Positions 39,480 through 56,015 of a DNA stretch of 64,000 nucleotides are shown here, piece after piece. How positions within the stretch are numbered: the first letter of the stretch is position 1; each line of letters begins with the position of its first letter. Both the position numbers and the translations under genes were made by a program. Source of the DNA: Candidatus Rokuibacteriota bacterium (GTDB taxonomy: Bacteria; Methylomirabilota; Methylomirabilia; Rokubacteriales; CSP1-6); NCBI GenBank assembly GCA_003220225.1, contig QHRU01000031.1:1-64000 (forward strand). The letters run 5' to 3'. Under the pieces are notes generated by a model. That model was not told the origin of the DNA and searched no databases. It was given only the letters and a program-made list of their open reading frames with translations.

Positions 39480-40642
39480 TGCCGTGGCCCTTCTCCGACA
39501 CGGTAGAGCCGCGCGCAATTGTCCCAGAGGATCTTGGCCTTCGTTTTGTCGCTCACGCCCTCGAGCGCGACGAACTCGCTCATCGCCTCCGGGAACAGCC
39601 CGTCGGAGTGCGGGTAGTCGGTCGAGACGACGATGTTGTCGTCGCCGACCGCCTCCACCACCTGCCGCAGCACCTTCTCGTCGGCGTCGGTGGCCACGTA
39701 GCACTGCCGATAGAAGTATTCGCTGGGAAGGCCCGTGATCTGCACCTCGGAGCCCGGGCCGAACTTCTCCCACGCCTCGTCCAGGCGCCAGAGCCACCAC
39801 GGGAGCCAGCCGCACGTGCCTTCGAGGAACGCGCAGCGCAGGCCCGGGTGACGCTCGAGCACGCCGCCGGCGGCCATGCTCGCGAACGCGAACATCAGCT
39901 CGACGGGATTGCGTCCGGCCACGCCGATCACGCGGCCGTTCGGGGTATCGAGGTAGCGCCGCGCGATGTCGTCGCGCAGCGACGCCTGACCCGTCGGATG
40001 AAAGCCGATCGGCACGCCGAGCTCCTCGATGGCGTCCCACAGCGGCTCGAGCTCCGGATCGTGGACGTGCCGGCCGTTGATCGGGTTCGGGTTGCCGATG
40101 ACGGCCACCGCGCCCCGCTCGCGCACGGCGCGCCGCGCCTCGCGGGCCGCGAGCTTGGGATCGTGGAAGGCGACCTGGGCGGCGAACTTGAGGCGCTTGG
40201 GATCGTACTGGCAGTAGTCGGCCGTCCAGTTGTTGTGCGCCCGCGCGAGCGCGTCGGCCACGAGCGGATCGAGATCGTCGTGCATCTGCACCTGGCGCCC
40301 GCGGGTGCCGTAGAGGATCGCGACGTCGATGCCCTCGATGTCCATGGCCCGGACGTGGGACTCGGCGTCGTATCCGCGCGCGTGCGCGACCTCGTAGTGG
40401 GGCGAGCGCTCGAAGGCGCGTCGCTGGAGGTCCTTGCCGACGACGGCCGTCCGTGGCCGCTTCGACATCTCCCCGATCTCGAGGTCGCCGATGCGGATCA
40501 TCGGCTGATTCGACGCGTTGTCCGTTCTCCGGATGAACTTCGGCGCGAACTTCTTGAAGGGCTCGTCGAGGTAGCGCTCCCAGAGACCGTCCGGCTCCAT
40601 CGTGTGCAGGTCGCTGTCCATGACCTTGAACCCGTTCTTCAT
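39476..40642 (-). CDS. Amidohydrolase-2 family protein
   Basis: A 388-residue metal-dependent hydrolase paralogous to that at 13348-14547; both start with M-K-x-G and share the strand VMDSDLHTMEPDGLW (Asp11, His13). Late landmarks are IGFHPTGQ and the catalytic strand IVVSTDYPHSDGLFP. GGAGGACGCC precedes the ATG. The start overlaps the MocA-type gene stop and its own stop overlaps the amidase start, so all three are translationally coupled. Confidence 0.88.
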   Translation of the reverse strand: MKNGFKVMDSDLHTMEPDGLWERYLDEPFKKFAPKFIRRTDNASNQPMIRIGDLEIGEMSKRPRTAVVGKDLQRRAFERSPHYEVAHARGYDAESHVRAMDIEGIDVAILYGTRGRQVQMHDDLDPLVADALARAHNNWTADYCQYDPKRLKFAAQVAFHDPKLAAREARRAVRERGAVAVIGNPNPINGRHVHDPELEPLWDAIEELGVPIGFHPTGQASLRDDIARRYLDTPNGRVIGVAGRNPVELMFAFASMAAGGVLERHPGLRCAFLEGTCGWLPWWLWRLDEAWEKFGPGSEVQITGLPSEYFYRQCYVATDADEKVLRQVVEAVGDDNIVVSTDYPHSDGLFPEAMSEFVALEGVSDKTKAKILWDNCARLYRVGEGPRQ

Positions 40643-41691
40643 GGCGTCCTCCGATCCGGAGTGTAGTCCAGCGCCAGCGCAACTTCACGCCCCTCTCGCA
40701 ACGACTGCTCGACGGCGAGACACACGGCCACGGCGCGTCGAGCATCCTCGCCGGACACGAGTGGCCGCCGCTCCCGAAAGGCCGGCACGATCCGTCGGAG
40801 CTGCTCCTCGAGCTCGAACAGCTCACCCGAGGCCGCGAGCGGAATGGCCTCGGGCGCCGTCGCGCCCCGCCGGCGCACCTTCAGCTCGAAGGCCGCCTCC
40901 CGGCTGCGGTCCAGGACGCCCGACCAGAAGCCGCGCAGCGCGCCCTCGGTCCCGATCACCTCGGCCGTCAGGTGATATTCGAAGCCGGCGAGCGTCTGCG
41001 TCACCACCGCGTAACGGCCTCCGGGAAACCGCAGCGTACAGCTGACGGCCTCGGACATCGCCGCGTCGGCCGCCGACGAATGACCGACGGTGCTCACCGA
41101 CACCGGCTCACCGCAGCGCGCGAAATACCAGAGGAGCAGGTCGAAGTGATGCACCAGCTCCTCCATGATCCAGGAGCCGATCCGGCGCCGCTCGTAGCGC
41201 CAGCCGTCGGAGCCCGGCCGATACGGGAATCGGAACAGGTTGATCGTCGCGCACCGCACGTCGCCGAGGTCGCCCGAGTCGATGGCCGCCTTGATGGCGC
41301 CCCACTGGGCCGACAGGCGTAGCTCGTGGCCGACGGAGAGCACGCGGCCCGTCCGGCGCGCCGCCATCAGTAGACGGTCGCACTCGGCGAGCGTCGGAGC
41401 CAGTGGCTTCTCGAGCAGGACGTCCTTGTCCTGCTCCAGCGCGGCCACCCCGCACTCGGCGTGGAGGTCGTTGGGCAGAACCACGTCGACGGCGTCGACG
41501 TCACGCCGCGCCAGCAGCTCGTGATAGTCGAGGTGCACCGGCACGCCGGGGAAGTCGCGGCGGGCGTCGGCGGCCGTCGCCTCGCTGCGGCACGCGATCG
41601 CCGTCAGCGTCGCGCCGGGCGCGCGGGTGATCGCCCGCGCGTGATGCCGGCCCCACAGCCCGTAGCCGACGAGGCCGAAGCGCACGCTCAT
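40639..41691 (-). CDS. Gfo/Idh/MocA family oxidoreductase
   Basis: A 350-residue NAD(P)-dependent dehydrogenase. The N-terminal Rossmann fold has FGLVGYGLWGRHHARA; VDAVDVVLPNDLH and the family Lys in LLEKPLAPT follow; the C-terminal domain includes IGSWIMEELVHHFDLLLWYF. It begins within the stop of the sugar-type permease gene (ATGA overlap). Association with a carbohydrate-class importer suggests oxidation of a sugar or cyclitol derivative. Confidence 0.9.
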   Translation of the reverse strand: MSVRFGLVGYGLWGRHHARAITRAPGATLTAIACRSEATAADARRDFPGVPVHLDYHELLARRDVDAVDVVLPNDLHAECGVAALEQDKDVLLEKPLAPTLAECDRLLMAARRTGRVLSVGHELRLSAQWGAIKAAIDSGDLGDVRCATINLFRFPYRPGSDGWRYERRRIGSWIMEELVHHFDLLLWYFARCGEPVSVSTVGHSSAADAAMSEAVSCTLRFPGGRYAVVTQTLAGFEYHLTAEVIGTEGALRGFWSGVLDRSREAAFELKVRRRGATAPEAIPLAASGELFELEEQLRRIVPAFRERRPLVSGEDARRAVAVCLAVEQSLREGREVALALDYTPDRRTP

Positions 41692-42578
41692 CCCTTGAGC
41701 GCTCCGCTGACGAGCCCGCGGACGACGTACTTCTGGAGCACGACCACGAGGAGGAGCGTGGGCGCCAGGCCCAGCAGGCAGATCGCCATCATCAGCGTGA
41801 AGAAGACGAAGTAGTCGGAGACGAGCCCCGCGAGGACCACCGGCACCGTCATGGCCTCGGGCCGGCTGACGACGATGAGCGGAATCAGCAGCTCGTGCCA
41901 CGACAGGATGAACATGATGGTGGCGCACGCGGCCAGCCCCGGCGTGGCGAGCGGCAGCACGATCCGCCGGAACGCGCCGAAGCGCGTGCAGCCGTCGATG
42001 CGCGCGGCGTCCTCCAGCTCGGCCGGCAGCGAGGCGAGATACGGCGCCAGGATCAGCACGGCGTACGGGACCAGGAATCCCACCTCCGCGATGACGACGC
42101 CCGTCAGGGAGTTGAGCAGCCCGTACGTCCGGAACAGGACGTAGAGCGGCACCATCAGCACGATCAACGGCACCAGCCGGCTCGCCACCGACAGCGAGAG
42201 CATCGCCTTCACCCACCGGAGGTTCAGGCGCGCCACCGTGTAGGCGGACAGGCTTCCCAGCACCAGCGTGAGGAGCGTCACCGCGCACGCCACGATCAGA
42301 CTGTTGGCGAACGCCGCCGGGAAGCGGTCGACCGACTTCGGCAGGTACGTCACCTGCTCGAAGATGGGGCCCCGCGTCGCGCCGCCGGAGAGGATGAGCT
42401 GGAAGTTCGCGAGGGTGATCTCGCGCGGGAGCAGCGCGCGGACGTCGCGCTGGATCACCTTCTCGGACTGCAGGCTGGCCAGGACGACCGGGGCCAGCGG
42501 CGCCAGCAGAAATGCGATGGCGGCGAGATTCGCCAGCCACAAGAGCGCCCGCCGACGCCACGAGAGGCGCCACGCCAC
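41688..42578 (-). CDS. Carbohydrate ABC transporter permease (MalG class)
   Basis: A 296-residue inner-membrane permease with about six spans and the EAA loop ELEDAARIDGCTRFGAFRRI, characteristic of the sugar-importer MalG/UgpE group. The start is GTG, 3 bp after the MalF-class gene stop. No MalK-type ATPase is encoded in the operon; such importers often share an ATPase from elsewhere in the genome. Confidence 0.92.
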   Translation of the reverse strand: MAWRLSWRRRALLWLANLAAIAFLLAPLAPVVLASLQSEKVIQRDVRALLPREITLANFQLILSGGATRGPIFEQVTYLPKSVDRFPAAFANSLIVACAVTLLTLVLGSLSAYTVARLNLRWVKAMLSLSVASRLVPLIVLMVPLYVLFRTYGLLNSLTGVVIAEVGFLVPYAVLILAPYLASLPAELEDAARIDGCTRFGAFRRIVLPLATPGLAACATIMFILSWHELLIPLIVVSRPEAMTVPVVLAGLVSDYFVFFTLMMAICLLGLAPTLLLVVVLQKYVVRGLVSGALKG

Positions 42579-42581
42579 GGC

Positions 42582-43454
42582 TCAGGGCTCCAGCCGCCGG
42601 CCGACGAGCCGCGCGTACGCGAGGCCCGCCACCGCGAGGATGAGCGCCATCACCCACGCCGAGGCCGAGCCGAGGCCGACGTTGAACGGCGGCTGGAAGG
42701 CCGCCCGGTACGTGTACCAGGCCGCCACCCACGTGGCGTTGCCCGGCCCGCCCTGCGTGATCGCGAAGATCTCGTCGAAGACCATGAACGCGAACGCCGT
42801 CCTCAAGATGAGGCTCACGGCGATGACCGGTCGCAGCAGCGGCAGCGTGATCCGCCAGAAGCGGCTCCAGCCCGAGGCACCATCCACTTCCGCCGCCTCG
42901 TAGTAGTCGCGCGGGATCCCCTGCAGGCCCGCGTGGTAGAGGAGGATGTTGAACGGCGTGGTGCGCCAGACGTACGCGGTGATCACGGCGCCCATGGCCA
43001 GCCGCGAGTCGCCGAGCCAGTTGACGTGCTCGGCGATCAGCCCCAGCGCCAGCAGCGCGCGGTTGAGATAGCCGTACTGAGCGTTGAAGATGAACGACCA
43101 GAGCAGGCCGTTGACGACCGGCGGCACGCCCCACGGCACGAGCAACAGCCCCCGCGTCACCCGCGAGAGCCACACGCGCTCATCGTTGATCACGAGCGCG
43201 ATGGCCAGCGCGATCACCACCTCGAGCGCCACCGAGATCGCCACGAACACCACGGTGTGCGAGAGCGCCAGCCAGAAGACGTCGTCCCGGAACAGCCGGA
43301 CGTAATTGGCGGCACCGGCGAACGGGAACTCGCCCGTTCTCAGCTGCCGGATGCTCACCTCGTGCAGCGAGAGCCAGCCGGCGTAGAGCACCGGCCACGC
43401 CAGGATCAGCGCGAGCCAGAGGCCGGACGGCGCGTTCATCAGGAGCGCGAGCAC
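42582..43454 (-). CDS. Carbohydrate ABC transporter permease (MalF class)
   Basis: A 290-residue permease with EAA loop YYEAAEVDGASGWSRFWRIT and family segments such as VPWGVPPVVNGLLW. The frame is open far upstream, but that portion overlaps the binding-protein gene. I take GTG 43454 as start because it directly follows that gene; ATG 43439 is the alternative, and neither has a strong ribosome site. It pairs with the MalG-class gene to form the heterodimeric channel. Confidence 0.88.
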   Translation of the reverse strand: MLALLMNAPSGLWLALILAWPVLYAGWLSLHEVSIRQLRTGEFPFAGAANYVRLFRDDVFWLALSHTVVFVAISVALEVVIALAIALVINDERVWLSRVTRGLLLVPWGVPPVVNGLLWSFIFNAQYGYLNRALLALGLIAEHVNWLGDSRLAMGAVITAYVWRTTPFNILLYHAGLQGIPRDYYEAAEVDGASGWSRFWRITLPLLRPVIAVSLILRTAFAFMVFDEIFAITQGGPGNATWVAAWYTYRAAFQPPFNVGLGSASAWVMALILAVAGLAYARLVGRRLEP

Positions 43455-43489
43455 TCCCGCCGTCGGCTCGCGGCGCCGGAGGGGGACGC

Positions 43490-44842
43490 TCAGGCTCGCT
43501 TGGCCTTCGCGACGGCGGCGACCATGTTGTCGCACGCCTGGTCGGCCGTCACCTTCCCCTGCAGGCACGCCGTCAGCTCGACGTTCATCATGTCGCTCCA
43601 GCGCGGGTACCACGGCTGGGAGACCGTCGGCACGACCTCGGCGAAGTTCGTCGCGCCTTTCCAGGCGGACAGGATCGTGGGCACGTCGCCCCACTTCGAC
43701 CAGCCCTTGCGCAACAGCTCGCTGTCCATGACCGACTGGTAGCCGCTGCCGAGCATCGCGTCGGTGGCGAGGCGGTTGGCCTGCGTGTACTCGCCGTTCT
43801 TCGTCCGGCCGCCGAGATACTGCAGCAGCTTCCACGCCCACTCGCGGTCCTTGGTATTGCCGGTGAGGATGTAGAGCATGGTGTACCCGATCGTCTTGCC
43901 GTCGCCCGGGTGACCGAGCACGCGCCCCTTACCGGCGATCGGCGACTGCGCGGCGTCGTTGATCAGGCTGACGTAGTAGTGGTGCAGCGTGCCGAGGTAG
44001 ACGTGCTGCCCGGCGTTGAACGCTTTGACGGCCGGGATGAATCGCAGGTTGAGCGAGTTCGGATCGGCTAGCTCGTCCTTGAACGTGCCCTGCCACCAGC
44101 GCAGCGTCTCCCGCGCGACGGAGCCCGCGCCGAGCTGAGGCGCCAGCTGCCGATCGAAGATGACGCCACCGCGGTTGCACGTGAGGCTGAACCACGTGCC
44201 GGGCAGCTGCTCGAATCCCTGGCCCCCGATCCACAGGATCGGGTACCTGGCCACACCGTCGCGCTTGGCCTTGCGCGCCTGGTCGACCAGCTCCGGGTAG
44301 CTGCGAAAGGGCTTGTCCTTGAACCCGGCCCTGGTCAGCAGCTCGTCGTTGTACATGAAGGTCCACACCGTCGAGAAGTACGGCAGGCCCCACGTCTTGC
44401 CGTCGCGCTGGGCAATCGCCCGCGTGAACGGCGTGAAGTCGCGCACGTACTGCTCGACGCCGGGCAGGCCGTCGATCGGCAGGGCGATGCCCTGCTCGAT
44501 GTAGTTCGCCAGGTATTGCATCGGCGACTGCGAGACGTCGACCGTATCGCCGGCGGCGTACATCGCGGTCAGCTTGGCGACCTGCGGCTCGACGTTGGGC
44601 TCGATGACCTGATTGACCTTGACGCCCCAGTCGTCCTCGAACTGTTTGGCGATCTGGTCGTAGATCTTGCCGTACTGCCACACGACGAACGTCACCTGGC
44701 GTGGATGGCCGGGAGGCCGCTGCGCCCATGGGCCGCCCTGGGCGGGGACCGCGCCGGGCAGCAGGCCGGCGCCCGCCGCGGCCGCCGCCGTCCCGATGAA
44801 CCGCCGACGACTCCAGCGTCCGGCGTGTGGTGTGCTCGGCAT
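43490..44842 (-). CDS. Carbohydrate-type ABC transporter substrate-binding protein (Tat-exported)
   Basis: A 450-residue family 1 binding protein. The start at ATG 44842 has GGAGG upstream and gives a twin-arginine signal, WSRRRFIGTAAAAAGAGLLP. Export through Tat is therefore likely, unusual among sugar-binding proteins but common in this kind of genome. The mature part has VTFVVWQYGKIYDQIAKQFE, GKTWGLPYFSTVWTFMYN and a C-terminal CLQGKVTADQACDNMVAA. It leads the minus-strand operon; the divergent partner is the Ni/Co-type gene at 44990. Confidence 0.9.
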   Translation of the reverse strand: MPSTPHAGRWSRRRFIGTAAAAAGAGLLPGAVPAQGGPWAQRPPGHPRQVTFVVWQYGKIYDQIAKQFEDDWGVKVNQVIEPNVEPQVAKLTAMYAAGDTVDVSQSPMQYLANYIEQGIALPIDGLPGVEQYVRDFTPFTRAIAQRDGKTWGLPYFSTVWTFMYNDELLTRAGFKDKPFRSYPELVDQARKAKRDGVARYPILWIGGQGFEQLPGTWFSLTCNRGGVIFDRQLAPQLGAGSVARETLRWWQGTFKDELADPNSLNLRFIPAVKAFNAGQHVYLGTLHHYYVSLINDAAQSPIAGKGRVLGHPGDGKTIGYTMLYILTGNTKDREWAWKLLQYLGGRTKNGEYTQANRLATDAMLGSGYQSVMDSELLRKGWSKWGDVPTILSAWKGATNFAEVVPTVSQPWYPRWSDMMNVELTACLQGKVTADQACDNMVAAVAKAKRA

Positions 44843-44906
44843 CGGCGTCCTCCATCCGCGGATGTCGCGGGCCTCACGGATAGCGCCGACGGCTCGGGGT
44901 GTCAAG

Positions 44907-44942
44907 GCTGCTGACGCAGCCGCGTTGCTGCTGACGCAGCCG
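44907..44942. repeat. Tandem pair of 16-bp repeats forming hairpins
   Basis: GCTGCTGACGCAGCCG occurs twice (44907-44922 and 44927-44942) with a four-base spacer. Each copy can fold as a short hairpin (GCTGC-TGAC-GCAGC). The pair sits in the 147-bp divergent region between the Tat-exported binding protein and the Ni/Co transporter gene, so it could be a tandem regulator site. Confidence 0.6.
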
Positions 44943-44989
44943 ATGGCGCCGATTGCGCTCGGCCTCCGCCGAGGCGTAGGATTCGCCGC

Positions 44990-45784
44990 GTGACGGAGAC
45001 GGTGTTCTATCTCGCGTCCAGCTTCTGGCTCGGCGCCGTGCACGCGGCGACGCCGGGACACGGCAAGACGATCTCCGCCGCGTACATCGTCGGCGCGCGC
45101 GGACGTCCGGTGGACGCCCTCGTGCTCGGCATCTTCGTCACGCTCTCACACACGAGCGGCATCATCCTCGTGGCCGTGCTCGCCACCATGGGGTCGGCAT
45201 GGCTGGTGCCGCAGCGCGTGGAGGCCTACCTCGGCGTCGGCACGGGCCTGCTCGTCGTCGCGATCGGCCTGTGGATGCTCCGGATTCAGATGTCGCTCGC
45301 ATCCGACGGCAGCGACGCGCACGCTCACGACGCGGAGCCTGACCATGAGCACGAACACGCCCACGAGGGCCACACGCACGCTCACGCGCATGGCCACGAT
45401 CACGTCCACAGTCACGGCTGGGGCGTCCGGCACAGTCACCGCGTCGATCTCGACGCCCTCACGCGTCCGCGGCTGCCGATCCTGCTCGGTCTCGGCATCG
45501 CGGGCGGTCTGCTCCCCGACCCCGGCGCTCTGGCCATCCTGCTCGCCGCCCTCGCGAGCGGGAAGCTGGTGCTGGGCCTGTTCACGGTCGTCGTGTTCAG
45601 CATCGGGTTCGCGTCGGTGCTGGTCATCGTCGGCGTGGTGGCCGCGCGCGTGGGGGCGGTGGTGCTGACCTGGCTCAGCGGACGCTGGATGGGCTGGCTT
45701 CAGGTGGGGGCGGCGCTGCTGATCGTCGCCGTCGGCCTCGGTCTCACGGTCACGGCGTGGCGGAGCCTCGTGGCGTTCCACTAG
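44990..45784 (+). CDS. NicO/RcnA-family nickel/cobalt transporter with His-rich loop
   Basis: A 264-residue membrane protein with about six spans. The first span carries VHAATPGHGKT (His18, His24), the signature of the NicO/RcnA family, and LSHTSGI follows. A long cytoplasmic loop at 111-150 is exceptionally rich in His, Asp and Glu (for example HEHAHEGHTHAHAHGHDHVH), which binds divalent metal. RcnA members export Ni and Co; NicO relatives may import. The start is GTG. It is followed 14 bp later by a second metal-transporter gene. Confidence 0.85.
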   Translation: MTETVFYLASSFWLGAVHAATPGHGKTISAAYIVGARGRPVDALVLGIFVTLSHTSGIILVAVLATMGSAWLVPQRVEAYLGVGTGLLVVAIGLWMLRIQMSLASDGSDAHAHDAEPDHEHEHAHEGHTHAHAHGHDHVHSHGWGVRHSHRVDLDALTRPRLPILLGLGIAGGLLPDPGALAILLAALASGKLVLGLFTVVVFSIGFASVLVIVGVVAARVGAVVLTWLSGRWMGWLQVGAALLIVAVGLGLTVTAWRSLVAFH

Positions 45785-45798
45785 GTGCGGCCGCCGAC

Positions 45799-46596
45799 AT
45801 GATCACCGCGCTCACGCTCGTCGCGCTCGGCTTCTTCCTCGGGATGCGGCATGCCACGGACGCCGATCACGTCATCGCCGTCAGCACGATCGTGACGCGA
45901 CAGCGGACACTGCGCGGCGGCGTGCTCATCGGCGGCTTGTGGGGGCTCGGCCACACCCTGACCATCATGGGCGTCGGCGGCGCGATCATCGTCTTCAGCC
46001 TGGTGATCCCGCCCGCGCTCGGCCTGACGATGGAGATGACGGTGGCCCTCATGCTGATCGTGCTCGGGTTGTGGAATCTCACCGGAATCATCCAGACGCT
46101 TCGCGACCACCTCGGCGGGGGCGCCGGGCTGCACGCCCACGCGCACCGACACGGCGACTACGTGCACAGCCACCGCCACGGACATGGGGCGCAGGATCAC
46201 GGACATCGCGAAGATGCGACGCCGCAAGCCTGGCTCGATCGCCATCTCGGTGGGCTGGGCCTGTACCAGATGGTCCGCCCGCTCGTCGTGGGCCTGGTCC
46301 ACGGCCTGGCCGGCTCGGCGGCGGTGGCCCTCCTCGTGCTCACGACCATCGGCGACCCTCGATGGGCGATGGCCTACCTCGTGCTCTTCGGCATCGGCAC
46401 CATCGTGGGAATGATGCTCATCACGGTGGTCATCGCCGCGCCGATGGCGTACGCCGCCAGGCGATTGACGCACGTCGAACGCCACCTTCGGGTGGCGTCC
46501 GGTCTGTTGAGCCTGGGCTTCGGACTCTTTCTCGTCTATCACATCGGGTTCGTGAGCGGCCTGTTCACGGGCCATGCCGTCTGGACGCCCAAGTGA
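45799..46596 (+). CDS. NiCoT/HoxN-like nickel-cobalt transporter
   Basis: A 265-residue membrane protein beginning MITALTLVALGFFLGMRHAT; the next residues complete the DADH motif (His18, Asp21, Asp23, His24), the family signature HxxxDxDH of nickel/cobalt permeases and UreH-like proteins. Other conserved His are in GLWGLGHTLT and GLVHGLAGSAA. A His-rich loop lies around 125-150. ATG 45799 is preferred; an upstream GTG at 45757 would overlap the previous gene by 28 bp and add a non-membrane tail. The product may work together with, or against, the first transporter. Confidence 0.85.
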   Translation: MITALTLVALGFFLGMRHATDADHVIAVSTIVTRQRTLRGGVLIGGLWGLGHTLTIMGVGGAIIVFSLVIPPALGLTMEMTVALMLIVLGLWNLTGIIQTLRDHLGGGAGLHAHAHRHGDYVHSHRHGHGAQDHGHREDATPQAWLDRHLGGLGLYQMVRPLVVGLVHGLAGSAAVALLVLTTIGDPRWAMAYLVLFGIGTIVGMMLITVVIAAPMAYAARRLTHVERHLRVASGLLSLGFGLFLVYHIGFVSGLFTGHAVWTPK

Positions 46597-46600
46597 GACG

Positions 46601-47746
46601 GTGAAGTCGGGCGTCATCGCCGCGCTCGCGCAGGTCGTCCTCCTGTGGTCGAGCGCCGTCTCCGCTCACGATGCGAGCGCCTGGGGTGGGCTGTTCCGGT
46701 CACGCGATCACGGCGCGACGTGGTTTCTCGCGAGCCCCGGAACGTACCCGACGGCCGCCATCGCGCTCGCGGTCAGCCCGACCGACGGCAATCACCTGCT
46801 GCTCGCCACCGACAGCGGCCTGCTGCGCTCGCGTAACGGGGGTCGGGACTGGAGCCGCGAGGCGTCGAACGTGTTGACCGGCGCCGTCTTCGCCGCCGCC
46901 TTCGCCGGCGACGGCCGGCGCGCGCTGGTGTCGACGGGCACGGAAATCTTCCGGAGCGACGCGGACGGCGAGTGGCGCCCGACGCGGCCGCCGCGCGGCA
47001 CTCCGCCGGCCCGCGCCATCGCACGGGGCGCCGCGCCAGGCCGCGCGTACGTCGCCGGCTGGACCGGGTTCGTGCGCACCGATGACTGGGGCGCCTCCTG
47101 GTCCGACGCCGCCGATGGCCTTCCTGGCTCCCCGGTGACGTCGATGCTCGTGGTGCCGGGTCGACCCGAATCCCTTCACGTCCTCGTCGAGGGCCAGATG
47201 TGGTCGAGTCACGATGGGGCACAGACCTGGGTGAAGCGAGAGGCGGGGACGGAGGGCGTCGATGCGCTCGGGGACGATGCCGGCGTCGCGGGGCGGCTCT
47301 GGGCGGCGCGAGGCGATCGGCTGCTGAGGAGCGACGACGGCGGCGCGAGCTGGCGGGCGGCGGGTCGCCCGCTGCCGGAGCCGAACACGTCGGTGCGCGG
47401 AATCAGCGCGAGCGGAGACGTCGTCGTCGTCACCACGGATCGCGGGATCTTCCGCGCGAGCGACGGCGGGGAGCGCTGGACGCCGCTGGTCGACAACCTG
47501 CCCGCGCACCTCGAGGCGGGGCCGCTGGTGCGCGACCCGTCGGAGCCGGCGAGGCTGTTTGCGGGATTCGCCGTGACGCCCTATCCGGAACTCTGGCGTC
47601 GCGCCGTCGAGGGCACCGCGGCGTGGCAGCGGATCGACCTCTCGAGCCTCCTCGGCGCCGCCGCTTTTCTGACGCTGCTCGTCGTCCTCAGTTTCGTCGC
47701 CCTGCGCCGGCTGCGCCGGCACTATCGAGCGGACCCCCTTCGATGA
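46601..47746 (+). CDS. Exported BNR/sortilin-like beta-propeller protein with C-terminal membrane anchor
   Basis: A 381-residue protein: GTG 46601 followed by a signal peptide (IAALAQVVLLWSSAVSAH). Seven Asp-box-like repeats are readable, e.g. FRSRDHGATWFLAS, LRSRNGGRDWSREA, VRTDDWGASWSDAA, LRSDDGGASWRAAG and FRASDGGERWTPL, consistent with a propeller. The C-terminus is a membrane span with a basic tail (LLVVLSFVALRRLRRHYR), so it is anchored with the propeller outside. It follows the NiCoT gene by 4 bp and overlaps the next by ATGA. Such proteins resemble photosystem-assembly Ycf48/sortilin folds; role unknown. Confidence 0.8.
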   Translation: MKSGVIAALAQVVLLWSSAVSAHDASAWGGLFRSRDHGATWFLASPGTYPTAAIALAVSPTDGNHLLLATDSGLLRSRNGGRDWSREASNVLTGAVFAAAFAGDGRRALVSTGTEIFRSDADGEWRPTRPPRGTPPARAIARGAAPGRAYVAGWTGFVRTDDWGASWSDAADGLPGSPVTSMLVVPGRPESLHVLVEGQMWSSHDGAQTWVKREAGTEGVDALGDDAGVAGRLWAARGDRLLRSDDGGASWRAAGRPLPEPNTSVRGISASGDVVVVTTDRGIFRASDGGERWTPLVDNLPAHLEAGPLVRDPSEPARLFAGFAVTPYPELWRRAVEGTAAWQRIDLSSLLGAAAFLTLLVVLSFVALRRLRRHYRADPLR

Positions 47747-48738
47747 GCCCGGCCGCGATGCCGGCCGCCTTGCGTCGTCACGCGTGGCTGACGGTGGCGG
47801 GCCTCGTGATCGTCGCCGGTCTCCTCGCGTTCGTCTGGGGGCCCTGGCGCGACTCCGGATTCGTCGAGCACCGCATGCTGCGGCGCACGGACATCCCCGC
47901 GGCCATCGCGGTCGCGCCGGACGGCGCGGTCTGGTTCACGATCGAGATGTCGGACGCGCTCGGCGTGCACCGCCACGGCAAAATCGAGCGTCTGTCCAAG
48001 CAAACGCCAAATCTCGAATCGCTGGGTCTCGACGTCGACGCCGACGGCGGCGCCTGGTACACGGACGCAAGCGCCCGCGCCGTCGCCCGCATGGCGGCCG
48101 ACGGCAGCATTCGAGCGTTCCCCCTGACCACGCCCATCGTCAGGCTCGGCCGACTGGCCGTCGCGCCCGACCGCGCGGTGTGGTTCGCCGATGCCACGAC
48201 GGCCAGCGTGACTCGGCTCAAAGACGGCGTGTTCACGCGCCACGTCTCCCGCTCGTCGGGCGCCGTTCCGTGGGGCGTCGCGGTCGACGCTCGCGGCACG
48301 GTCTGGGCCACGTTGCCGAACGTGAACCGGCTGGCCCGCATCGCCGGAGACGGCCAGGTGACGGAATTCGATGTCCCGACGCGCGGCAGCGGGCTCGGCG
48401 ACGTGGCCGTCGATGCCAGCGGCGCCGTGTGGTTCCTCGAGCAGCAAGCGAACCGGATCGGGCGCTTCGCGGACGGTCGATTCTCGGAGTTCGCGATTGC
48501 CACGCCCTCGCCCGGCCTCACCGCGCTCGCCGTGGCGCCCGACGGCGCCGTGTGGTTCAGCGAGCTCCGGAGCGGGCGATTGGGGCGGCTGCGCGACGGC
48601 CGCGTGACGGAATTTCGTCTGCCACGACCCGATGCCCGTCCGTTCGGCGTCACCGTCGATCGCGCGAACAACGTCTGGTACACCGATCTCGGCGGGTGGC
48701 TCGGGATGTTGCGCGCCGATCACGCGACGGGCGGATAG
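47743..48738 (+). CDS. Membrane-anchored virginiamycin-B-lyase-like beta-propeller
   Basis: A 331-residue protein with an N-terminal signal anchor (WLTVAGLVIVAGLLAFVWG) and repeats of the Vgb/streptogramin-lyase type: AVAPDGAVWFTIE, DVDADGGAWYTDA, AVAPDRAVWFADA, AVDASGAVWFLEQ, AVAPDGAVWFSEL. Each blade ends with an acidic or polar loop. True Vgb has a catalytic His and Mg-site residues that I cannot confirm here. The ATG lies inside the preceding stop codon region, so it is coupled to the BNR-type propeller, suggesting two partners of one surface complex. Confidence 0.8.
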   Translation: MSPAAMPAALRRHAWLTVAGLVIVAGLLAFVWGPWRDSGFVEHRMLRRTDIPAAIAVAPDGAVWFTIEMSDALGVHRHGKIERLSKQTPNLESLGLDVDADGGAWYTDASARAVARMAADGSIRAFPLTTPIVRLGRLAVAPDRAVWFADATTASVTRLKDGVFTRHVSRSSGAVPWGVAVDARGTVWATLPNVNRLARIAGDGQVTEFDVPTRGSGLGDVAVDASGAVWFLEQQANRIGRFADGRFSEFAIATPSPGLTALAVAPDGAVWFSELRSGRLGRLRDGRVTEFRLPRPDARPFGVTVDRANNVWYTDLGGWLGMLRADHATGG

Positions 48739-48764
48739 GTCAGTCCAATTAGCCGCGCTACTCG

Positions 48765-48793
48765 TTGACAATGGATGTGACGCGGAATAGCGT
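48765..48793 (+). promoter_or_regulatory. Sigma70-like promoter
   Basis: TTGACA at 48765-48770 is separated by 17 bases from TAGCGT at 48788-48793. The -35 is exact, the -10 weak. It argues that the following gene begins at 48842, since the earlier ATG at 48794 would lie at the transcription start. Confidence 0.45.
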
Positions 48794-48841
48794 ATGCGCG
48801 CCCTACTTGGGCTAGCCCATGATGCAGGTCGAGCCGAGCCG

Positions 48842-49417
48842 ATGATGCCTCGAGCGGAGAGACTCTCCCCGAGCATTTCCCGCCGCGGTCTTGTCCTGAT
48901 CGCAGTCGGCCTCCTGATCCTCATCGGGATCGTGATCGTCGCCGTCGCCCGCGAGGCGACCTCGCGCCGGGTCGTTGCCGCGGCACTCTCGCGCCCTGCG
49001 GCGCCGGCGAGGCCGCCGCTGACCCCCGCCGAGGAAACGTACATCCAGGCCTTGTGGCCCATCCACGGTGCGGTCGAGCGCAGCGCGGTGCGCATGAGCC
49101 TGGGCCAGATCTTCTACGTGACCAAGGACGTGGGACGGACCGAGCTCAAAGCCCGGGTCGACGAGGCGCTGACGACCTTTCAAAAGGCCGAGGCTCAGCT
49201 GCTCACGCTCGAGCCGCCGCCGTCGTTGCGGCCCGCCCACGACGAGTATGGCGCCGCCGTTCGTCTCTTCCACAAATCCGCGGTCGAGGTGTCGAAGATC
49301 TTCGCGGACGGCCGCGAAGACCACCTGCGAGCCGCGTATCCGCTGGCTCAGGAGGCCTCCGACAAGATCCGAGAGATCGGCGGCAGGTTCTGGCCAGGTG
49401 AGTTTCCACCCAACTGA
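48842..49417 (+). CDS. Membrane-anchored protein of unknown function
   Basis: A 191-residue protein starting at ATG 48842 (two ATGs in tandem; the one at 48794 is inside the promoter). A basic N-terminus precedes one span (GLVLIAVGLLILIGIVIVAV), then a helical periplasmic domain: LTPAEETYIQALWPIHGAVE, SAVRMSLGQIFYVTKD and KARVDEALTTFQKAEAQLLT. The helical layout resembles a four-helix ligand-binding or cytochrome-c-prime-like module but lacks CxxCH. No family recognised. Confidence 0.6.
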   Translation: MMPRAERLSPSISRRGLVLIAVGLLILIGIVIVAVAREATSRRVVAAALSRPAAPARPPLTPAEETYIQALWPIHGAVERSAVRMSLGQIFYVTKDVGRTELKARVDEALTTFQKAEAQLLTLEPPPSLRPAHDEYGAAVRLFHKSAVEVSKIFADGREDHLRAAYPLAQEASDKIREIGGRFWPGEFPPN

Positions 49418-49490
49418 GAAGGAGGTGTGACGAAAGGTCGCATCGCTCGTTGTGCGTTCGTGTCCCGGTCACGCTATCGGGAGGTAAGAG

Positions 49491-50648
49491 ATGAGAGGAA
49501 GAATCGTACGTGTCGTGTCGGCTCTTGCCGCCATCGCGGCGCTCGGCGTCCTCGTCAACGTGGGGACGCTCGCCGCCGACAACAATGACAACGACAACAA
49601 CGGAGGTCAGCACAGACCTCCCCAGACACTGCCGCAGGGCTTCGAGACCCACCGCGAGCTGCTGCACGACGCCATCCGCTCCGACGAGGCGCCGGAGAAT
49701 TCCGCCTGGATCCTCGAGAGCACCCGCTTCATGGGCGTGCCGTTCCGTTCCTTCATGCCGGACCGTGGCGACAAGCCCACCGTGGATCTCCCGGTGAACG
49801 TCGGCATCATCAAGGGGCCGGATGGAAAGCTCGGGCTGTACGACAGCGGCTGGAAGCAGCTGCACTACATCTTCGACCTGAACACCTCGTGCTGCTGGGC
49901 CCCGATTCGCCAGCAGATGACGGCGATCGGGCTCAATCCCAATGACGTCGAATGGATCGTCATCGGCCATGGCCACTGGGACCACGCCGGCCAGATCAGC
50001 GAGTTCCCGAACGCCATCCTGTACGTGCAGAAGGAAGAGCTCAAGCAGATCGACTTCTTCCTCAACTACCCGTCCACGTTCGACGGTGGACACATCAGCC
50101 GGGTGAACACGGATCCGGGCGGGTGCGCGCGCAGCCCCGTCTGCGGATATCCGCCCCAGACCGTCAACGAGATCCTCGGCAAGGTTCTCGGCGGAAAGGC
50201 GCACATCGTCGACGGACGCCACGAGATCCGGAGGGGCGTGATCATTCATCCTGCCTTCCGGGGCCACACCTACGGCTCGCAGCTGCTGCAGGTGAACACG
50301 CCCCGCGGCCAGCTGGTGTTCGGCAGCGACACGTACTCGTCCTGGGAAGGCATTCGGGACTGGAACGTCGCGAACATCCAGCAGACGGACACCATCCAGC
50401 AGATGCTCGCCTACGAGAAGTGCTACGTGCTGACGTCGCGGCCGGGAGACATGAGCTTCCACAACTGCGTGTCGGCTCACGAGCCAATCTCTTACACCGC
50501 CGGTTATCCCCTCACGTCCAACTGGTGGCTGATCCCGGGTGGCAACTGCTCACGCGCCGCCGAGCTCACGCTGGCGAACGGTGAGGGAACCCACGTGCCG
50601 AACCCGCCGCCCCGCGGAGCGTGCACGCCGGTGATTCCGCCTCACTAG
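49491..50648 (+). CDS. Exported metallo-beta-lactamase-fold hydrolase
   Basis: A 385-residue protein with a signal peptide (VVSALAAIAALGVLVNVG) and an Asn/Asp-rich linker. The metal motif is VIGHGHWDHAG (His160, His162, Asp164, His165), followed by GVIIHPAFRGHT and LVFGSDTYSSWEGIRD. GGGAGGTAAGAG precedes the ATG. Lactonases and related quorum-quenching enzymes share this motif, but several CC or C-containing segments (NTSCCWAP, GCARSPVCGY) are unlike AiiA types and suggest disulfides, consistent with export. A strong hairpin follows. Confidence 0.85.
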   Translation: MRGRIVRVVSALAAIAALGVLVNVGTLAADNNDNDNNGGQHRPPQTLPQGFETHRELLHDAIRSDEAPENSAWILESTRFMGVPFRSFMPDRGDKPTVDLPVNVGIIKGPDGKLGLYDSGWKQLHYIFDLNTSCCWAPIRQQMTAIGLNPNDVEWIVIGHGHWDHAGQISEFPNAILYVQKEELKQIDFFLNYPSTFDGGHISRVNTDPGGCARSPVCGYPPQTVNEILGKVLGGKAHIVDGRHEIRRGVIIHPAFRGHTYGSQLLQVNTPRGQLVFGSDTYSSWEGIRDWNVANIQQTDTIQQMLAYEKCYVLTSRPGDMSFHNCVSAHEPISYTAGYPLTSNWWLIPGGNCSRAAELTLANGEGTHVPNPPPRGACTPVIPPH

Positions 50649-50679
50649 CTTTCGGCTCGCGTCGCTGAGCGTGTCGGCG

Positions 50680-50709
50680 TCCGGAGCCCGTGTCAGCACG
50701 GGCTCCGGA
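50680..50709. terminator. Strong hairpin terminator
   Basis: Perfect 13-bp stem TCCGGAGCCCGTG / CACGGGCTCCGGA with loop TCAG, 31 bp after the metallohydrolase stop. No T-tract follows, so it may act with Rho or as an mRNA-stabilising hairpin. Confidence 0.7.
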
Positions 50710-50791
50710 TGCCGGCGACACCGAAGCTCACGCCCAGGCGTCATGCCCGACGCGTTGACAGACATCGCTGCGCGACCTAGGGTGTCGCACC

Positions 50792-51988
50792 ATGGCGGAC
50801 ACGGCGGACGTGGTGGTCGTCGGCGGCGGCGTCATCGGCACGAGCATCGCCTTCGCGCTGGCCTCGGCCGGCGTCAAGCGCGTCACGCTGCTCGAAAAGG
50901 GCGCGCTCGCCAGCGGCGCCTCGGGCCGCTCGAGCGCGCTCATCCGCATGCACTACGTCAACGAGGAGGACGCACGCCTGGCGTGGGCGAGCTTCCCCGT
51001 GTTCAGGGACTGGCGCGAGCGCATGGGCGGGCCGCCCGTGTTCACGCAGACGGGCTTCGTGGCCGTGGTCGGTCATCGCGATGCGGCGGCGCTGCGCGCC
51101 AACGTCGAGATGCTGAAGAAGATCGGCATCGACACGACCGCGCTGTCGCCGGCCGAGCTCAAGACGCTCCAGCCGTTCGTGAACGTGGACGACGTCGGCG
51201 CCGTCGCCTACGAGCCGGCGAGCGGCTACGCGAGCCCGGCCGACGTGGTGGAAGGCTTTCGCCGGCAGGCCCAGGCGCGCGGCGCGCACATATTACAGTG
51301 GACGCCGGCGACGCGCATCGTCCGGCGCGAGAGCGCCGTGGTCGGCGTCGAGACCGCGGCCGCGCGCATCGACGCCGGCGCCGTCGTGGTGGCGGCCGGC
51401 GCGTGGGCGCCGCGGCTCTGCCGCGAGATCGGGATCGCGCTCGACGCGCGGCCCAAGGCCCTCGACACGATGCTGGTGACGCGCCCACCGGAGATCGCGA
51501 AGCCGCACATGGTCGTGATCGACCACGTGCTCGGCACCTACTTCCGGCCGGAGGGCGACGCCCAGACGATCGTCGGCGTGCCGTGCCAGGTGTGGGACAT
51601 CGATCCCGACACGATGCCGACGGGCCTGCCGCCGTCCGCGCCGGTGGAGGGCGCGCAGATGCTCACCCACCGCATGCCCCCGATGGAGCGCGCCGCGCTC
51701 TCGCGCGGCTATCGCGCCTTCGACTGCTACAGCGCCGACCGCCACGCGATTCTCGGCGCGGTGGGCGGGATCGACGGCCTGTATCTCGCGACCGCCTTCA
51801 GCGGCTCCGGCTTCAAGATCGCGCCGGCCGTCGGCGCGTGCCTGGCCGAGCTGATCACCGAGGGCCGCGCGCGCACCGTCGACATCTCCGCGTTTCGCCC
51901 CGAGCGGTTCGCCGAGGGCCGGCCCATCGCGGGTCGGCACCCATACGCGCCACGCCGCGATCACGTGGAGCCGACTCGTTCGGCTTAG
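50792..51988 (+). CDS. FAD-dependent oxidoreductase, DAO family
   Basis: A 398-residue flavoenzyme with the N-terminal FAD site VVVVGGGVIGTSIAFALASA, a GASGRSSALIRMHY motif typical of glycine/sarcosine oxidase-type enzymes, and the C-terminal GLYLATAFSGSGFKIAPAVG that closes the flavin site. It is cytoplasmic. Substrates are probably D-amino acids or N-methylated amines. It converges with another enzyme of the same superfamily (52079-53188), with a shared terminator between them. Confidence 0.88.
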   Translation: MADTADVVVVGGGVIGTSIAFALASAGVKRVTLLEKGALASGASGRSSALIRMHYVNEEDARLAWASFPVFRDWRERMGGPPVFTQTGFVAVVGHRDAAALRANVEMLKKIGIDTTALSPAELKTLQPFVNVDDVGAVAYEPASGYASPADVVEGFRRQAQARGAHILQWTPATRIVRRESAVVGVETAAARIDAGAVVVAAGAWAPRLCREIGIALDARPKALDTMLVTRPPEIAKPHMVVIDHVLGTYFRPEGDAQTIVGVPCQVWDIDPDTMPTGLPPSAPVEGAQMLTHRMPPMERAALSRGYRAFDCYSADRHAILGAVGGIDGLYLATAFSGSGFKIAPAVGACLAELITEGRARTVDISAFRPERFAEGRPIAGRHPYAPRRDHVEPTRSA

Positions 51989-52050
51989 GAAGCTGTCGCG
52001 GGATCGAGGGGTGTCACGGCTTCGCCGGGGCGCCCCGAGCGCTGGGGGGT

Positions 52051-52077
52051 ATGGGGGGCCATTTCGGGGCCCCCCAT
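52051..52077. terminator. Hairpin terminator between convergent genes
   Basis: Stem ATGGGGGGCC / GGCCCCCCAT with a 7-base loop, lying just before the minus-strand stop at 52079 and about 60 bp after the plus-strand stop at 51988. It serves the plus-strand gene and may be bidirectional. Confidence 0.7.
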
Positions 52078-52078
52078 C

Positions 52079-53188
52079 TCAATAGACAAAGCGGTCGGGT
52101 CGGAACGGTGCCAGCGACGGGTGGGGCGCGCCACCGACGACCTCGTCGGTGATCAGGCGACCGAGCAACGGGCCCAGCGTGACGCCACTGTGGGTGGCCA
52201 CGACCCAGATGTTGTCGAAGCCCGGCAGCCGCCCCGCGATCGTGTGACGATCGGCGGGCATCGGGCGCACGCCGACGCGGCGGTCGACCACCTTCACGCC
52301 GCGCGCGGCCGGCACCACGTGGGCCGCGCGCTCGAGCAGGAGCGCCGCGAGCTCGTCGAGCCTCGACGGCGAGCGCGCCTCCGCGGCGGGCGCATCGACG
52401 TCCTCGGCGCCGAGCAGCAAGCCCCCGCCCGCATCGGGCCGCAGATGAATGCCGGGCGCGTGCACGACGCGACGCAGCGGCTGCGCAGGCGGCGACGTCA
52501 CGGCCAGCAATCCGGGGACGCGGCCGACCGGGACACGGACGCCCAGCGGGGCGACGAACGCCTGCGTCGAGGGCCCGACGCAGACCACCAGCGAGCCGGC
52601 CGTCACCTCGCCGTCGTCGGCGACCAGCGCCTCCACGCGGCCGCCGCGCGCCCGCAGCGAGCGGACGGGCGCGCGCTCACGGATCACGGCGCCGCACGCC
52701 GACGCCGCCCGGAGGAGCGCTCGAATCAGGCGGGGCGCGTCGAGCCAGGCCTCAGCGGCGTAGAGAGCGACCTCGCGCACGTGATCGCCGACGACCAGCG
52801 CCGGCTCCAGCGCCCGGGCGCGCTCACGACTGATCCACTCCGCGGGGTAGCCACGACGCGCGAGCCGCTCGACACGAGCGCGAAGCTCCCGCTCCTGCTC
52901 GTCGCCCTCGGCCCATTCGAGCGACCCGCCCGGGTGATGGCCGGCGTCGCCCCCGAGCTCGCGCGCCAGCTCGCGGTGCGCGGCCATCCCGTCCGCGTTC
53001 AGCCGATGGTAGACCTCCGGCTCCTTCCTGGCGGCGTTCAGCCATGCGAAGGAGGTGCCGCTCGTGCCCTCGCCCGGAGCTCCCGCGTCGAGGGCCACGA
53101 TGCGCGCGCCCGCTCGCGCCGCTGCGTACGCGACCGAGGCGCCGACGATCCCGAGGCCGACGATGGCGAGGTCGTGCTGCGTCGTCAC
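52079..53188 (-). CDS. FAD-dependent oxidoreductase, glycine/D-amino-acid oxidase-like
   Basis: A 369-residue flavoenzyme of the DAO superfamily with LAIVGLGIVGASVAYAAARA for FAD, GTSFAWLNAARKE near the active site, and a late NIWVVATHSGVTLGP loop. The start is GTG. Similar enzymes deaminate D-amino acids or glycine, or act in opine and proline metabolism. It is divergent from the receiver gene at 53262 and convergent with its distant paralogue; by eye the two differ widely and are not a recent duplication. Confidence 0.87.
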   Translation of the reverse strand: MTTQHDLAIVGLGIVGASVAYAAARAGARIVALDAGAPGEGTSGTSFAWLNAARKEPEVYHRLNADGMAAHRELARELGGDAGHHPGGSLEWAEGDEQERELRARVERLARRGYPAEWISRERARALEPALVVGDHVREVALYAAEAWLDAPRLIRALLRAASACGAVIRERAPVRSLRARGGRVEALVADDGEVTAGSLVVCVGPSTQAFVAPLGVRVPVGRVPGLLAVTSPPAQPLRRVVHAPGIHLRPDAGGGLLLGAEDVDAPAAEARSPSRLDELAALLLERAAHVVPAARGVKVVDRRVGVRPMPADRHTIAGRLPGFDNIWVVATHSGVTLGPLLGRLITDEVVGGAPHPSLAPFRPDRFVY

Positions 53189-53261
53189 GCCGTGGACTGT
53201 ATCAGACGGCGACGATCGGTCACCGCTTGACAGCCCAACACGCCGGCATATAGTCGCGCCG

Positions 53262-53815
53262 ATGCCCCGTCACGCCGCCGTGACCCACCCGGCAGTCCCC
53301 TCACGTTCGGAGGCGGTTCCGCACCGGCGTCTCGAGCGCGAACGAATCCGCTCGGGCGGCGGCACCCTGCCGGGCGACGTCAGGAAGCCTTCGGAATTCG
53401 GCCCGGCGCCGGCGGCGGAACCTGGTCGGCTCCAACGCGTGCTCGTCGGACTCCGCGTCCTCGTCGTCGATGACCACCCCGACGTCCTGGAGCTCTTCGC
53501 GGTGGCGCTGACGGCCTGCGGCGCCGAGGTGACGACCGTCGACAACGCGCGCGACGCTCTCGCGCTCGCGACACAGACGCGGCCCCACGCCGTCGTCAGC
53601 GACATCGCGATGATCGGCGAAGACGGCTACTGGCTCGTTCGGCAATTGAAGCGGCTGCCCGGCGCGATGCTGGCCGACGTTCCCGTCATCGCGGCCACCG
53701 CCTACGGGCACGAGCATCCCCGCGCGCGCGTCCTGGCCGCGGGGTTCGCCGAGCATCTCCAGAAGCCCATCGACCCCGAGCTGCTCTGCCGGCTCGTCGC
53801 GAGCGTGACGGGGCG

Positions 53816-53819
<4 letters not shown>
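53262..53819 (+). CDS. Receiver-only protein with GYWL signature, copy 2
   Basis: A 185-residue protein with an unstructured, Arg/Pro-rich N-terminus of about 60 residues then a receiver: VLVVDDHPDV, phosphoacceptor Asp114 in VVSDIAMIGEDGYWLVRQLK, and Lys in LQKPIDPE. It is related to the receiver at 32803 (shared GYWL patch). The ATG at 53262 is plausible but lacks a clear ribosome site. It converges with the PAS kinase gene, overlapping its end by four bases. Confidence 0.8.
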
Positions 53820-55387
<1,568 letters not shown>

Positions 55388-55392
55388 CTGAT

Positions 55393-55902: not shown

Positions 55903-56015
55903 GGAGCCGGATCCTCGCACCGGATCCTCGCATACTTGACTGCCTTCCCCGGGCGCGGCTATTGTTCGACTCCCTGTGACCGCTGGACCGTGAAGTCATC
56001 CCCGAGGAGGCCGCC

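What the first reader, a model, noticed from the sequence alone, without database searches (positions are those of the whole stretch)
44990..48738. Nickel/cobalt transporters linked to two surface propellers
A NicO/RcnA-like and a NiCoT-like protein are immediately followed, with 4-bp spacing or overlap, by two membrane-anchored propellers (BNR-type and Vgb-type). I know no described system with this order; the propellers might be metal-site assembly or sensing partners.
Basis: partly seen in the sequence, partly recalled or inferred. Interest (0 to 1): 0.52.

Follow-up and report, generated by a model that had tools for sequence, protein, structure and literature searches.

The report
Six-gene metal-transporter and propeller module
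Two nickel/cobalt-type membrane transporters travel together with two membrane-anchored propeller proteins, a secreted metal-dependent hydrolase and a small anchored helical protein in two distantly related groups of soil bacteria, which points to an undescribed system for handling metal at the inner membrane.

Summary
The four genes are real and in the stated order, but they are part of a six-gene module: an anchored four-helix protein (48842-49417) and a secreted metallo-beta-lactamase-fold hydrolase (49491-50648) follow directly. Outside the window's genus the usual order is NiCoT, helical protein, hydrolase, BNR, Vgb, with RcnA convergent; the window is a reshuffled form. Among 95 genomes of the class the two propellers occur in the same 10, always with a transporter. 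The module recurs in identical order in an alphaproteobacterial genus (hydrolase in 12 of 265 genomes; 8 loci with all six genes), and a broken copy sits on a Bradyrhizobium plasmid. In 22 of 23 BNR copies the predicted signal-peptidase cut leaves an invariant histidine as residue 1, as in the N-terminal-histidine metal-binding proteins described in 2025. The Vgb-like propeller lacks the lyase's catalytic histidines. Best reading: a horizontally spread periplasmic metal-handling module with the BNR propeller as metal-binding partner of the NicO transporters. Metal and hydrolase substrate are unknown.

The parts
44990..45784 (+). RcnA-like NicO-family transporter, 264 aa, His-rich loop
   Evidence: PF03824 45.3 bits over cut-off; relatives at >=60% identity in 11 of 95 genomes, 8 of them with the propellers
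45799..46596 (+). NiCoT-like NicO-superfamily transporter, 265 aa, HX4DH motif and His-rich loop
   Evidence: PF03824 22.5 bits, below cut-off; alignment of 14
46601..47746 (+). BNR/Ycf48-like seven-bladed propeller with signal peptide, predicted mature N-terminal His (His32 counted from ATG 46574) and C-terminal membrane helix; alternative start ATG 46574
   Evidence: model, fold match, alignments, cleavage pattern
47743..48738 (+). Vgb-like propeller with N-terminal membrane anchor, 331 aa; lyase catalytic residues absent
   Evidence: PF24684 197.9 bits
48842..49417 (+). Membrane-anchored periplasmic four-helix-bundle protein, 191 aa, no Pfam family
   Evidence: model pLDDT 85.5; conserved beside the other genes
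49491..50648 (+). Secreted metallo-beta-lactamase-fold hydrolase, 385 aa, complete metal-ligand set
   Evidence: PF00753 36.4 bits; ligands invariant in 20 copies; in 8 of the 10 propeller genomes and in none of the other 85

Best explanation
A six-gene, horizontally spread periplasmic metal-handling module. Shown by sequence: two NicO-superfamily permeases are held together with two inner-membrane-anchored propellers, an anchored four-helix protein and a secreted metallo-beta-lactamase-fold hydrolase. Inferred: after signal-peptide removal the BNR propeller exposes His as residue 1 and binds a transition-metal ion there, held beside the permeases by its C-terminal helix. It would work like the N-terminal-histidine 'anglerase' domains that are fused to HupE/UreJ-2 nickel permeases, but as a separate propeller. 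RcnA, the more constant transporter, moves metal out of the cytoplasm; NiCoT is an optional import arm. The Vgb-like propeller and the helical protein are anchored scaffold or ligand-binding parts. The hydrolase is the metal-dependent enzyme that is served by, or that feeds, this system. Nickel or cobalt is likeliest from the transporter family; copper or zinc are not excluded.
For: Both propellers in the same 10 of 95 genomes, each time with a NicO-type gene. Same six genes in the same order in a second phylum and a broken copy on a plasmid beside an IS110 transposase. No other gene family is shared by the loci as a set. Purifying selection in 27 of 28 comparisons at dN/dS 0.02-0.36, one at 0.66. 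A pattern fit for signal peptidase I stands right before a histidine in 22 of 23 BNR copies; this His32, His74 and His312 are among only 45 invariant columns of 22 aligned copies. Precedent: N-terminal-His proteins bind Ni or Cu, and some are fused to nickel permeases (PMC12537917; abstract, passages and section 8 part 1 read). Hydrolase metal ligands invariant in 20 copies. In G062, which lacks NiCoT locally, an ArsP_1 permease and a DUF1980 gene stand between Vgb and RcnA.
Against: No metal binding, transport direction or expression has been measured. No conserved regulator or riboswitch ties the module to a metal. L132 has the four middle genes and neither transporter nearby, and its BNR has Pro before the His. 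The N-terminal residue is a prediction; about 3 of 72 crudely predicted secreted proteins outside the module also have His there. The window's NiCoT-like gene is below the Pfam cut-off.
Confidence: 0.42

Rival explanations
1. Metal-resistance cassette: RcnA exports excess nickel or cobalt, and the anchored propellers and helical protein buffer it in the periplasm; the hydrolase is a passenger or repair enzyme.
For: RcnA is the more constant transporter, NiCoT is missing in L038-L040; patchy spread and a plasmid copy, as resistance genes often have.
Against: The hydrolase is the most constrained gene (dN/dS 0.02-0.12) and is kept in both phyla; an importer-like NiCoT is usually present; no RcnR-like or other regulator is conserved.
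Confidence: 0.2
2. Dedicated maturation line for the hydrolase: RcnA and NiCoT set the periplasmic metal supply, and the propellers and four-helix protein fold and load the secreted hydrolase, as Ycf48 helps to assemble photosystem II.
For: Hydrolase invariably beside the propellers where the contig allows it to be seen; BNR has weak Ycf48 similarity (PF14870 24.3 bits); hydrolase, BNR and Vgb are missing or ruined together in G039 and G041.
Against: Metallo-beta-lactamase-fold enzymes do not in general need dedicated assembly factors (established knowledge); hydrolase subtypes appear to have been exchanged between modules, which is odd for a client with private chaperones.
Confidence: 0.2
3. 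Metallophore or metal-complex processing: the secreted lactonase-like hydrolase, with the propellers as binding platforms, opens an ester- or lactone-type metal complex and the transporters deal with the freed metal.
For: Best solved relatives of the hydrolase after 8x78 are lactonases; Vgb-type propellers act on cyclic lactone peptides (established knowledge).
Against: No receptor or biosynthesis gene is conserved beside the module; the Vgb-like propeller has lost the lyase residues.
Confidence: 0.1
4. Chance neighbourhood: unrelated genes that happen to be adjacent in one lineage.
For: In the window's genus the order differs from that of the other loci; L132 lacks both transporters.
Against: Same six genes and order in two phyla; the two propellers are in the same 10 of 95 genomes (about 1 in 10^13 for two independent random sets of ten, without correction for kinship).
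Confidence: 0.03

Closest known systems
Anglerases Ang-1/Ang-2 with HupE/UreJ-2 nickel permeases (Franco Cairo et al. 2025, PMC12537917)
   Same: Secreted domain with a conserved His right after the signal peptide, held at the membrane beside a nickel-type permease.
   Different: Here the His stands on a seven-bladed propeller in a separate gene, the permeases are NicO/RcnA-type, and four more genes are linked. The words propeller, BNR and NicO do not occur in the main text of that paper.
RcnA nickel/cobalt exporter (NCBIfam PRK10019; E. coli RcnA recalled)
   Same: NicO family with a His-rich loop; 104.5 bits to the RcnA model.
   Different: Below that model's cut-off of 195; no RcnR regulator; sits with propellers and a hydrolase.
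Virginiamycin B lyase Vgb
   Same: Vgb_lyase family PF24684 at 198 bits.
   Different: Membrane-anchored; Phe or Tyr in place of His228 in 21 of 21 aligned copies, and no invariant histidine.
Ycf48 photosystem II assembly factor
   Same: BNR propeller; PF14870 24.3 bits in the window, 29.1 bits in L130; one solved hit 5ojp at E 0.00027.
   Different: Gains a predicted N-terminal His and a C-terminal membrane helix; found in bacteria of non-photosynthetic lineages beside metal transporters.
Lactonase-like metallo-beta-lactamase-fold hydrolases (8x78; AiiA, GcL)
   Same: HxHxDH and further metal ligands; 103 bits to 8x78, about 35 bits to AiiA-type lactonases.
   Different: Secreted, with conserved cysteines, and always beside the propellers where testable.

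Membership tests
NicO transporter family (PF03824), gene 44990-45784 | Profile score over the curated cut-off of 27.7 bits | tested here: met
   45.3 bits
NicO transporter family (PF03824), gene 45799-46596 | Profile score over the curated cut-off of 27.7 bits | tested here: not met
   22.5 bits, so it is called NiCoT-like or NicO-superfamily only
NiCoT family (TIGR00802) | Profile score over the cut-off of 333 bits | tested here: not met
   22 bits
NiCoT family (TIGR00802) | HX4DH motif (recalled as the family signature) | tested here: met
   H18, D23, H24 invariant in 14 aligned proteins
RcnA nickel/cobalt exporter (NF007454) | Profile score over the cut-off of 195 bits | tested here: not met
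   104.5 bits, so it is called RcnA-like only
RcnA nickel/cobalt exporter (NF007454) | Exports nickel or cobalt | not testable with these tools
   no transport data
Streptogramin B lyase Vgb (NF000022) | Profile score over the cut-off of 600 bits | tested here: not met
   152.8 bits
Streptogramin B lyase Vgb (NF000022) | Catalytic His228, Glu268, His270, Glu284 (residue numbers recalled) | tested here: not met
   His228 is Phe or Tyr in 21 of 21; no invariant His in the family; alignment at 268-284 is unsettled
Ycf48 family (PF14870) | Profile score over the cut-off of 27 bits | tested here: inconclusive
   24.3 bits for the window protein, 29.1 for L130
Anglerase-like N-terminal-histidine metal-binding protein | His directly after the signal-peptide cut | tested here: met
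   cleavage pattern before an invariant His in 22 of 23 copies; a sequence prediction, not protein data
Anglerase (Ang-1/Ang-2) | His-bearing domain fused to a HupE/UreJ-2 permease domain | tested here: not met
   the propeller is a separate gene; its Pfam matches hold no permease domain
Anglerase-like N-terminal-histidine metal-binding protein | Binds Ni or Cu with nanomolar affinity | not testable with these tools
   needs purified protein
Metallo-beta-lactamase superfamily (PF00753), gene 49491-50648 | Profile over the cut-off of 22.7 bits, and HxHxDH plus further His and Asp ligands | tested here: met
   36.4 bits; H160, H162, D164, H165, H259, D280, H330 invariant in 20 copies

The most novel reading that the evidence does not exclude
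The BNR propeller founds a new fold class of N-terminal-histidine metal-capture proteins that work in trans with NicO permeases, and the six genes are an undescribed metal-handling machine with its own secreted metallohydrolase that has spread between Rokubacteria and bradyrhizobia.
Probability: 0.28. Interest if true: 0.75.

Novelty: new variant of a known kind. Interest (0 to 1): 0.6.

Why it matters
It turns several 'hypothetical' proteins and misnamed virginiamycin B lyases into parts of one defined, testable system. Bradyrhizobia can be grown and use nickel enzymes (established knowledge), so the module can be deleted and assayed there. If the propeller binds metal through its first residue, it adds an unrelated fold to a class of metal-capture proteins described only in 2025.

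Tried and rejected
Streptogramin resistance was rejected: the Vgb-like propeller lacks the catalytic histidines. A riboswitch was looked for and not found: no Rfam match at gathering score in window 40000-56000 or in ten of the loci (L039, L040, L042 and L043, part of the first request that was too large, were not searched).

A wider spread was sought with the hydrolase profile: 0 of 396 genomes of the Acidobacteriota phylum at E 1e-50 and 0 of 398 of a Pseudomonadota sample at 1e-40. The tool warns that empty answers prove little, and the genus that carries the module is rare in such a sample. The one genome-contig scan used the window BNR protein alone; of 20 loci one was a true orthologue (L045, the same contig as G001), and the other 19 are generic BNR proteins (21-32% identity) with no match to the other five families. 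Plasmid searches with the hydrolase and with NiCoT found nothing. NiCoT homologues of about 60% identity in five other genomes of the class (L081-L085) stand without the other module genes, so that NiCoT subfamily is wider than the module.

The absence of further families from the propeller fold search is not used as evidence. A crude count of secreted proteins outside the module had His at position 1 in 3 of 72; it is rough background only. Literature: no paper describing this gene set was found in the listings of searches; search 90 for the Vgb catalytic residues gave nothing useful, so those residue numbers are recalled; one search found no paper for entry 8x78.
Full report
What is in the window. 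The window lies in an unnamed draft genome whose same-genus relative G001 is Candidatus Rokuibacteriota AR40 (G001 contig 29 and record QHSB01000179.1 have the same length of 4821 bases and the same match). Four plus-strand genes follow each other at 44990-48738: an RcnA-like NicO transporter, a NiCoT-like transporter, a BNR propeller and a Vgb-like propeller. Gaps are 14 bp, 4 bp (from GTG 46601) and a 4-bp overlap. Two more genes follow on the same strand after 103 and 73 bp: a 191-aa anchored helical protein with no Pfam family and a 385-aa secreted metallo-beta-lactamase-fold hydrolase.

A conserved module, larger than described. In the 95 genomes of the class searched, close BNR relatives are in 10 genomes (E at most 1e-20) and close Vgb relatives in the same 10 (E at most 1e-40). 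The hydrolase is in 8 of these 10 and in none of the other 85 at 1e-30; the two without it, G001 and G002, have contigs that end inside the module. Gene maps: L034, L035 and L036 have all six genes in the order NiCoT, helical protein, hydrolase, BNR, Vgb, with RcnA on the opposite strand converging on Vgb. L037 shows the first five and then ends. L038, L039 and L040 have helical protein, hydrolase, BNR, Vgb and convergent RcnA but no NiCoT; L040 ends inside the helical gene, yet the best NiCoT in that genome (G050) is only 44% identical. The window and L032 (same genus) have RcnA, NiCoT, BNR, Vgb and helical protein on one strand, followed in the window by the hydrolase. L033 (same genus) shows NiCoT, BNR and most of Vgb, and no RcnA was found in that genome at 1e-15.

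Decayed copies. G039 (L042) has RcnA, NiCoT, a piece of the helical gene and a short frame in which the start of BNR runs into the end of Vgb, as an internal deletion would leave. G041 (L043) has the helical gene, NiCoT and a broken RcnA, and no hydrolase, BNR or Vgb. RcnA relatives at 60% identity or more occur in 11 of the 95 genomes: eight with the propellers, these two, and G052, whose contig ends in RcnA. NiCoT differs: relatives of about 60% identity occur in five genomes without other module genes nearby.

The same module in another phylum. A plasmid search with BNR hit one record, Bradyrhizobium sp. CB82 plasmid pCB82_1: BNR, a frame-broken Vgb gene and a broken convergent RcnA, with an IS110 transposase next door. 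A profile of the ten BNR proteins then found 3 of 391 genomes in the family of the Pseudorhodoplanes genome G096, and the hydrolase profile found 12 of 265 genomes in the genus of those hits. Their maps show NiCoT, helical protein, hydrolase, BNR, Vgb and convergent RcnA, complete and in that order, in eight loci (L111, L112 with a frameshifted NiCoT, L127-L131, L135). L133 and L134 are cut by contig ends. L113 has no NiCoT and ends 0.45 kb past Vgb. L132 has the four middle genes but neither transporter in the 3.7 kb and 1.4 kb left on either side. RcnA of the CB82 plasmid is 98% identical over its first 196 residues to that of L135, so the genus is very probably Bradyrhizobium (inference). 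Two copies lie on contigs of 9.5 and 9.8 Mb. In all, 21 of 23 loci with both propellers carry at least one NicO-type transporter, one is undecided and one has none.

Boundaries and constraint. When the called genes of 26 loci were clustered, only the six families spanned both phyla as a set; other shared clusters were flanks of near relatives, reading frames antisense to the Vgb gene, or single pairs. In pairwise tests 27 of 28 gene comparisons gave dN/dS of 0.02-0.36, the hydrolase lowest (0.02-0.12); one pair of almost identical helical genes gave 0.66. Pairwise identities of the families are highly correlated over both phyla (r 0.84-0.99). Within the class the hydrolase fits worst (r 0.34-0.78), and the hydrolases of L035-L038 are nearer to the bradyrhizobial ones (mean 67-74%) than the window's is (58%), so hydrolase subtypes seem to have been exchanged.

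The parts. BNR: AlphaFold model at mean pLDDT 82 with a signal helix 9-25, a propeller over about 45-335 and a membrane helix 356-386; the best structural match is a seven-bladed designed propeller (Z 26.0, rmsd 2.9, 277 residues). In 22 of 23 copies a residue pattern fit for signal peptidase I stands right before a histidine (the exception, L132, has Pro there). That His32, with His74 and His312, is invariant among 22 aligned copies, where only 45 columns are invariant. Vgb-like: no invariant histidine, and Phe or Tyr at the Vgb His228 position in 21 of 21, so not a streptogramin lyase by the known mechanism. Helical protein: one membrane helix and a four-helix bundle (pLDDT 85.5), with weak resemblance to chemoreceptor ligand-binding domains (best E 0.05), which may be only a common arrangement. 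Hydrolase: all metal ligands invariant in 20 copies; best solved relative 8x78 (103 bits), then lactonases.

Mechanism. Shown: linkage, order, conservation and, by prediction, topology. Inferred: metal binding by the BNR N-terminus. Franco Cairo et al. 2025 (PMC12537917; abstract, found passages and part one of section 8 read) report that proteins with a histidine right after the signal peptide bind nickel or copper with nanomolar affinity, and that such domains are fused to HupE/UreJ-2 nickel permeases. The module fits that pattern in trans, with a different fold. RcnA is kept where NiCoT is lost (L038-L040), so transport out of the cytoplasm is the more constant function (inference from the RcnA resemblance). 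In G062 an ArsP_1 permease and a DUF1980 gene sit between Vgb and RcnA in a module without NiCoT, which looks like an exchange of transporter.

What speaks against. No conserved regulator or riboswitch ties the module to a metal. L132 breaks the link to the transporters. The metal, the direction of transport and the substrate of the hydrolase are unknown. Searches in samples of Acidobacteriota and Pseudomonadota were empty.

Verdict. It is a new variant of metal-transport modules with an unusual cast and a clear first experiment.

Noticed in passing
L038:6870-8842: An ArsP_1-type permease and a DUF1980 protein follow the Vgb-like gene in a module that lacks NiCoT, as if one transporter had replaced another.
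   Followed up: partly
L042:9727-10107: A short frame joins the start of BNR to the end of the Vgb-like gene, a natural internal deletion that left a relic.
   Followed up: partly
L112:7063-13923 (also L128, L135): TatD-, phosphodiesterase-, dehydroquinate-synthase- and UbiA-type genes, resembling an ebo cluster (name recalled), stand next to the module in closely related genomes.
   Followed up: no
L035-L038 hydrolase genes against window:49491-50648: Two subtypes of the hydrolase in the class; the short one is nearer to the bradyrhizobial copies than to the window's.
   Followed up: partly
G000 contig 137:14675-15379 (L001): A second NicO-family gene of the same genome, 38% identical to the window's RcnA-like protein.
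   Followed up: no
window:18776-27286 (-): A 2836-aa frame with GH94 and glucoamylase domains, like a cyclic beta-1,2-glucan synthase (name recalled).
   Followed up: no
window:50792-56107: Two FAD-dependent oxidoreductases (DAO family) on opposite strands directly after the module, then a response regulator and a PAS histidine kinase.
   Followed up: no
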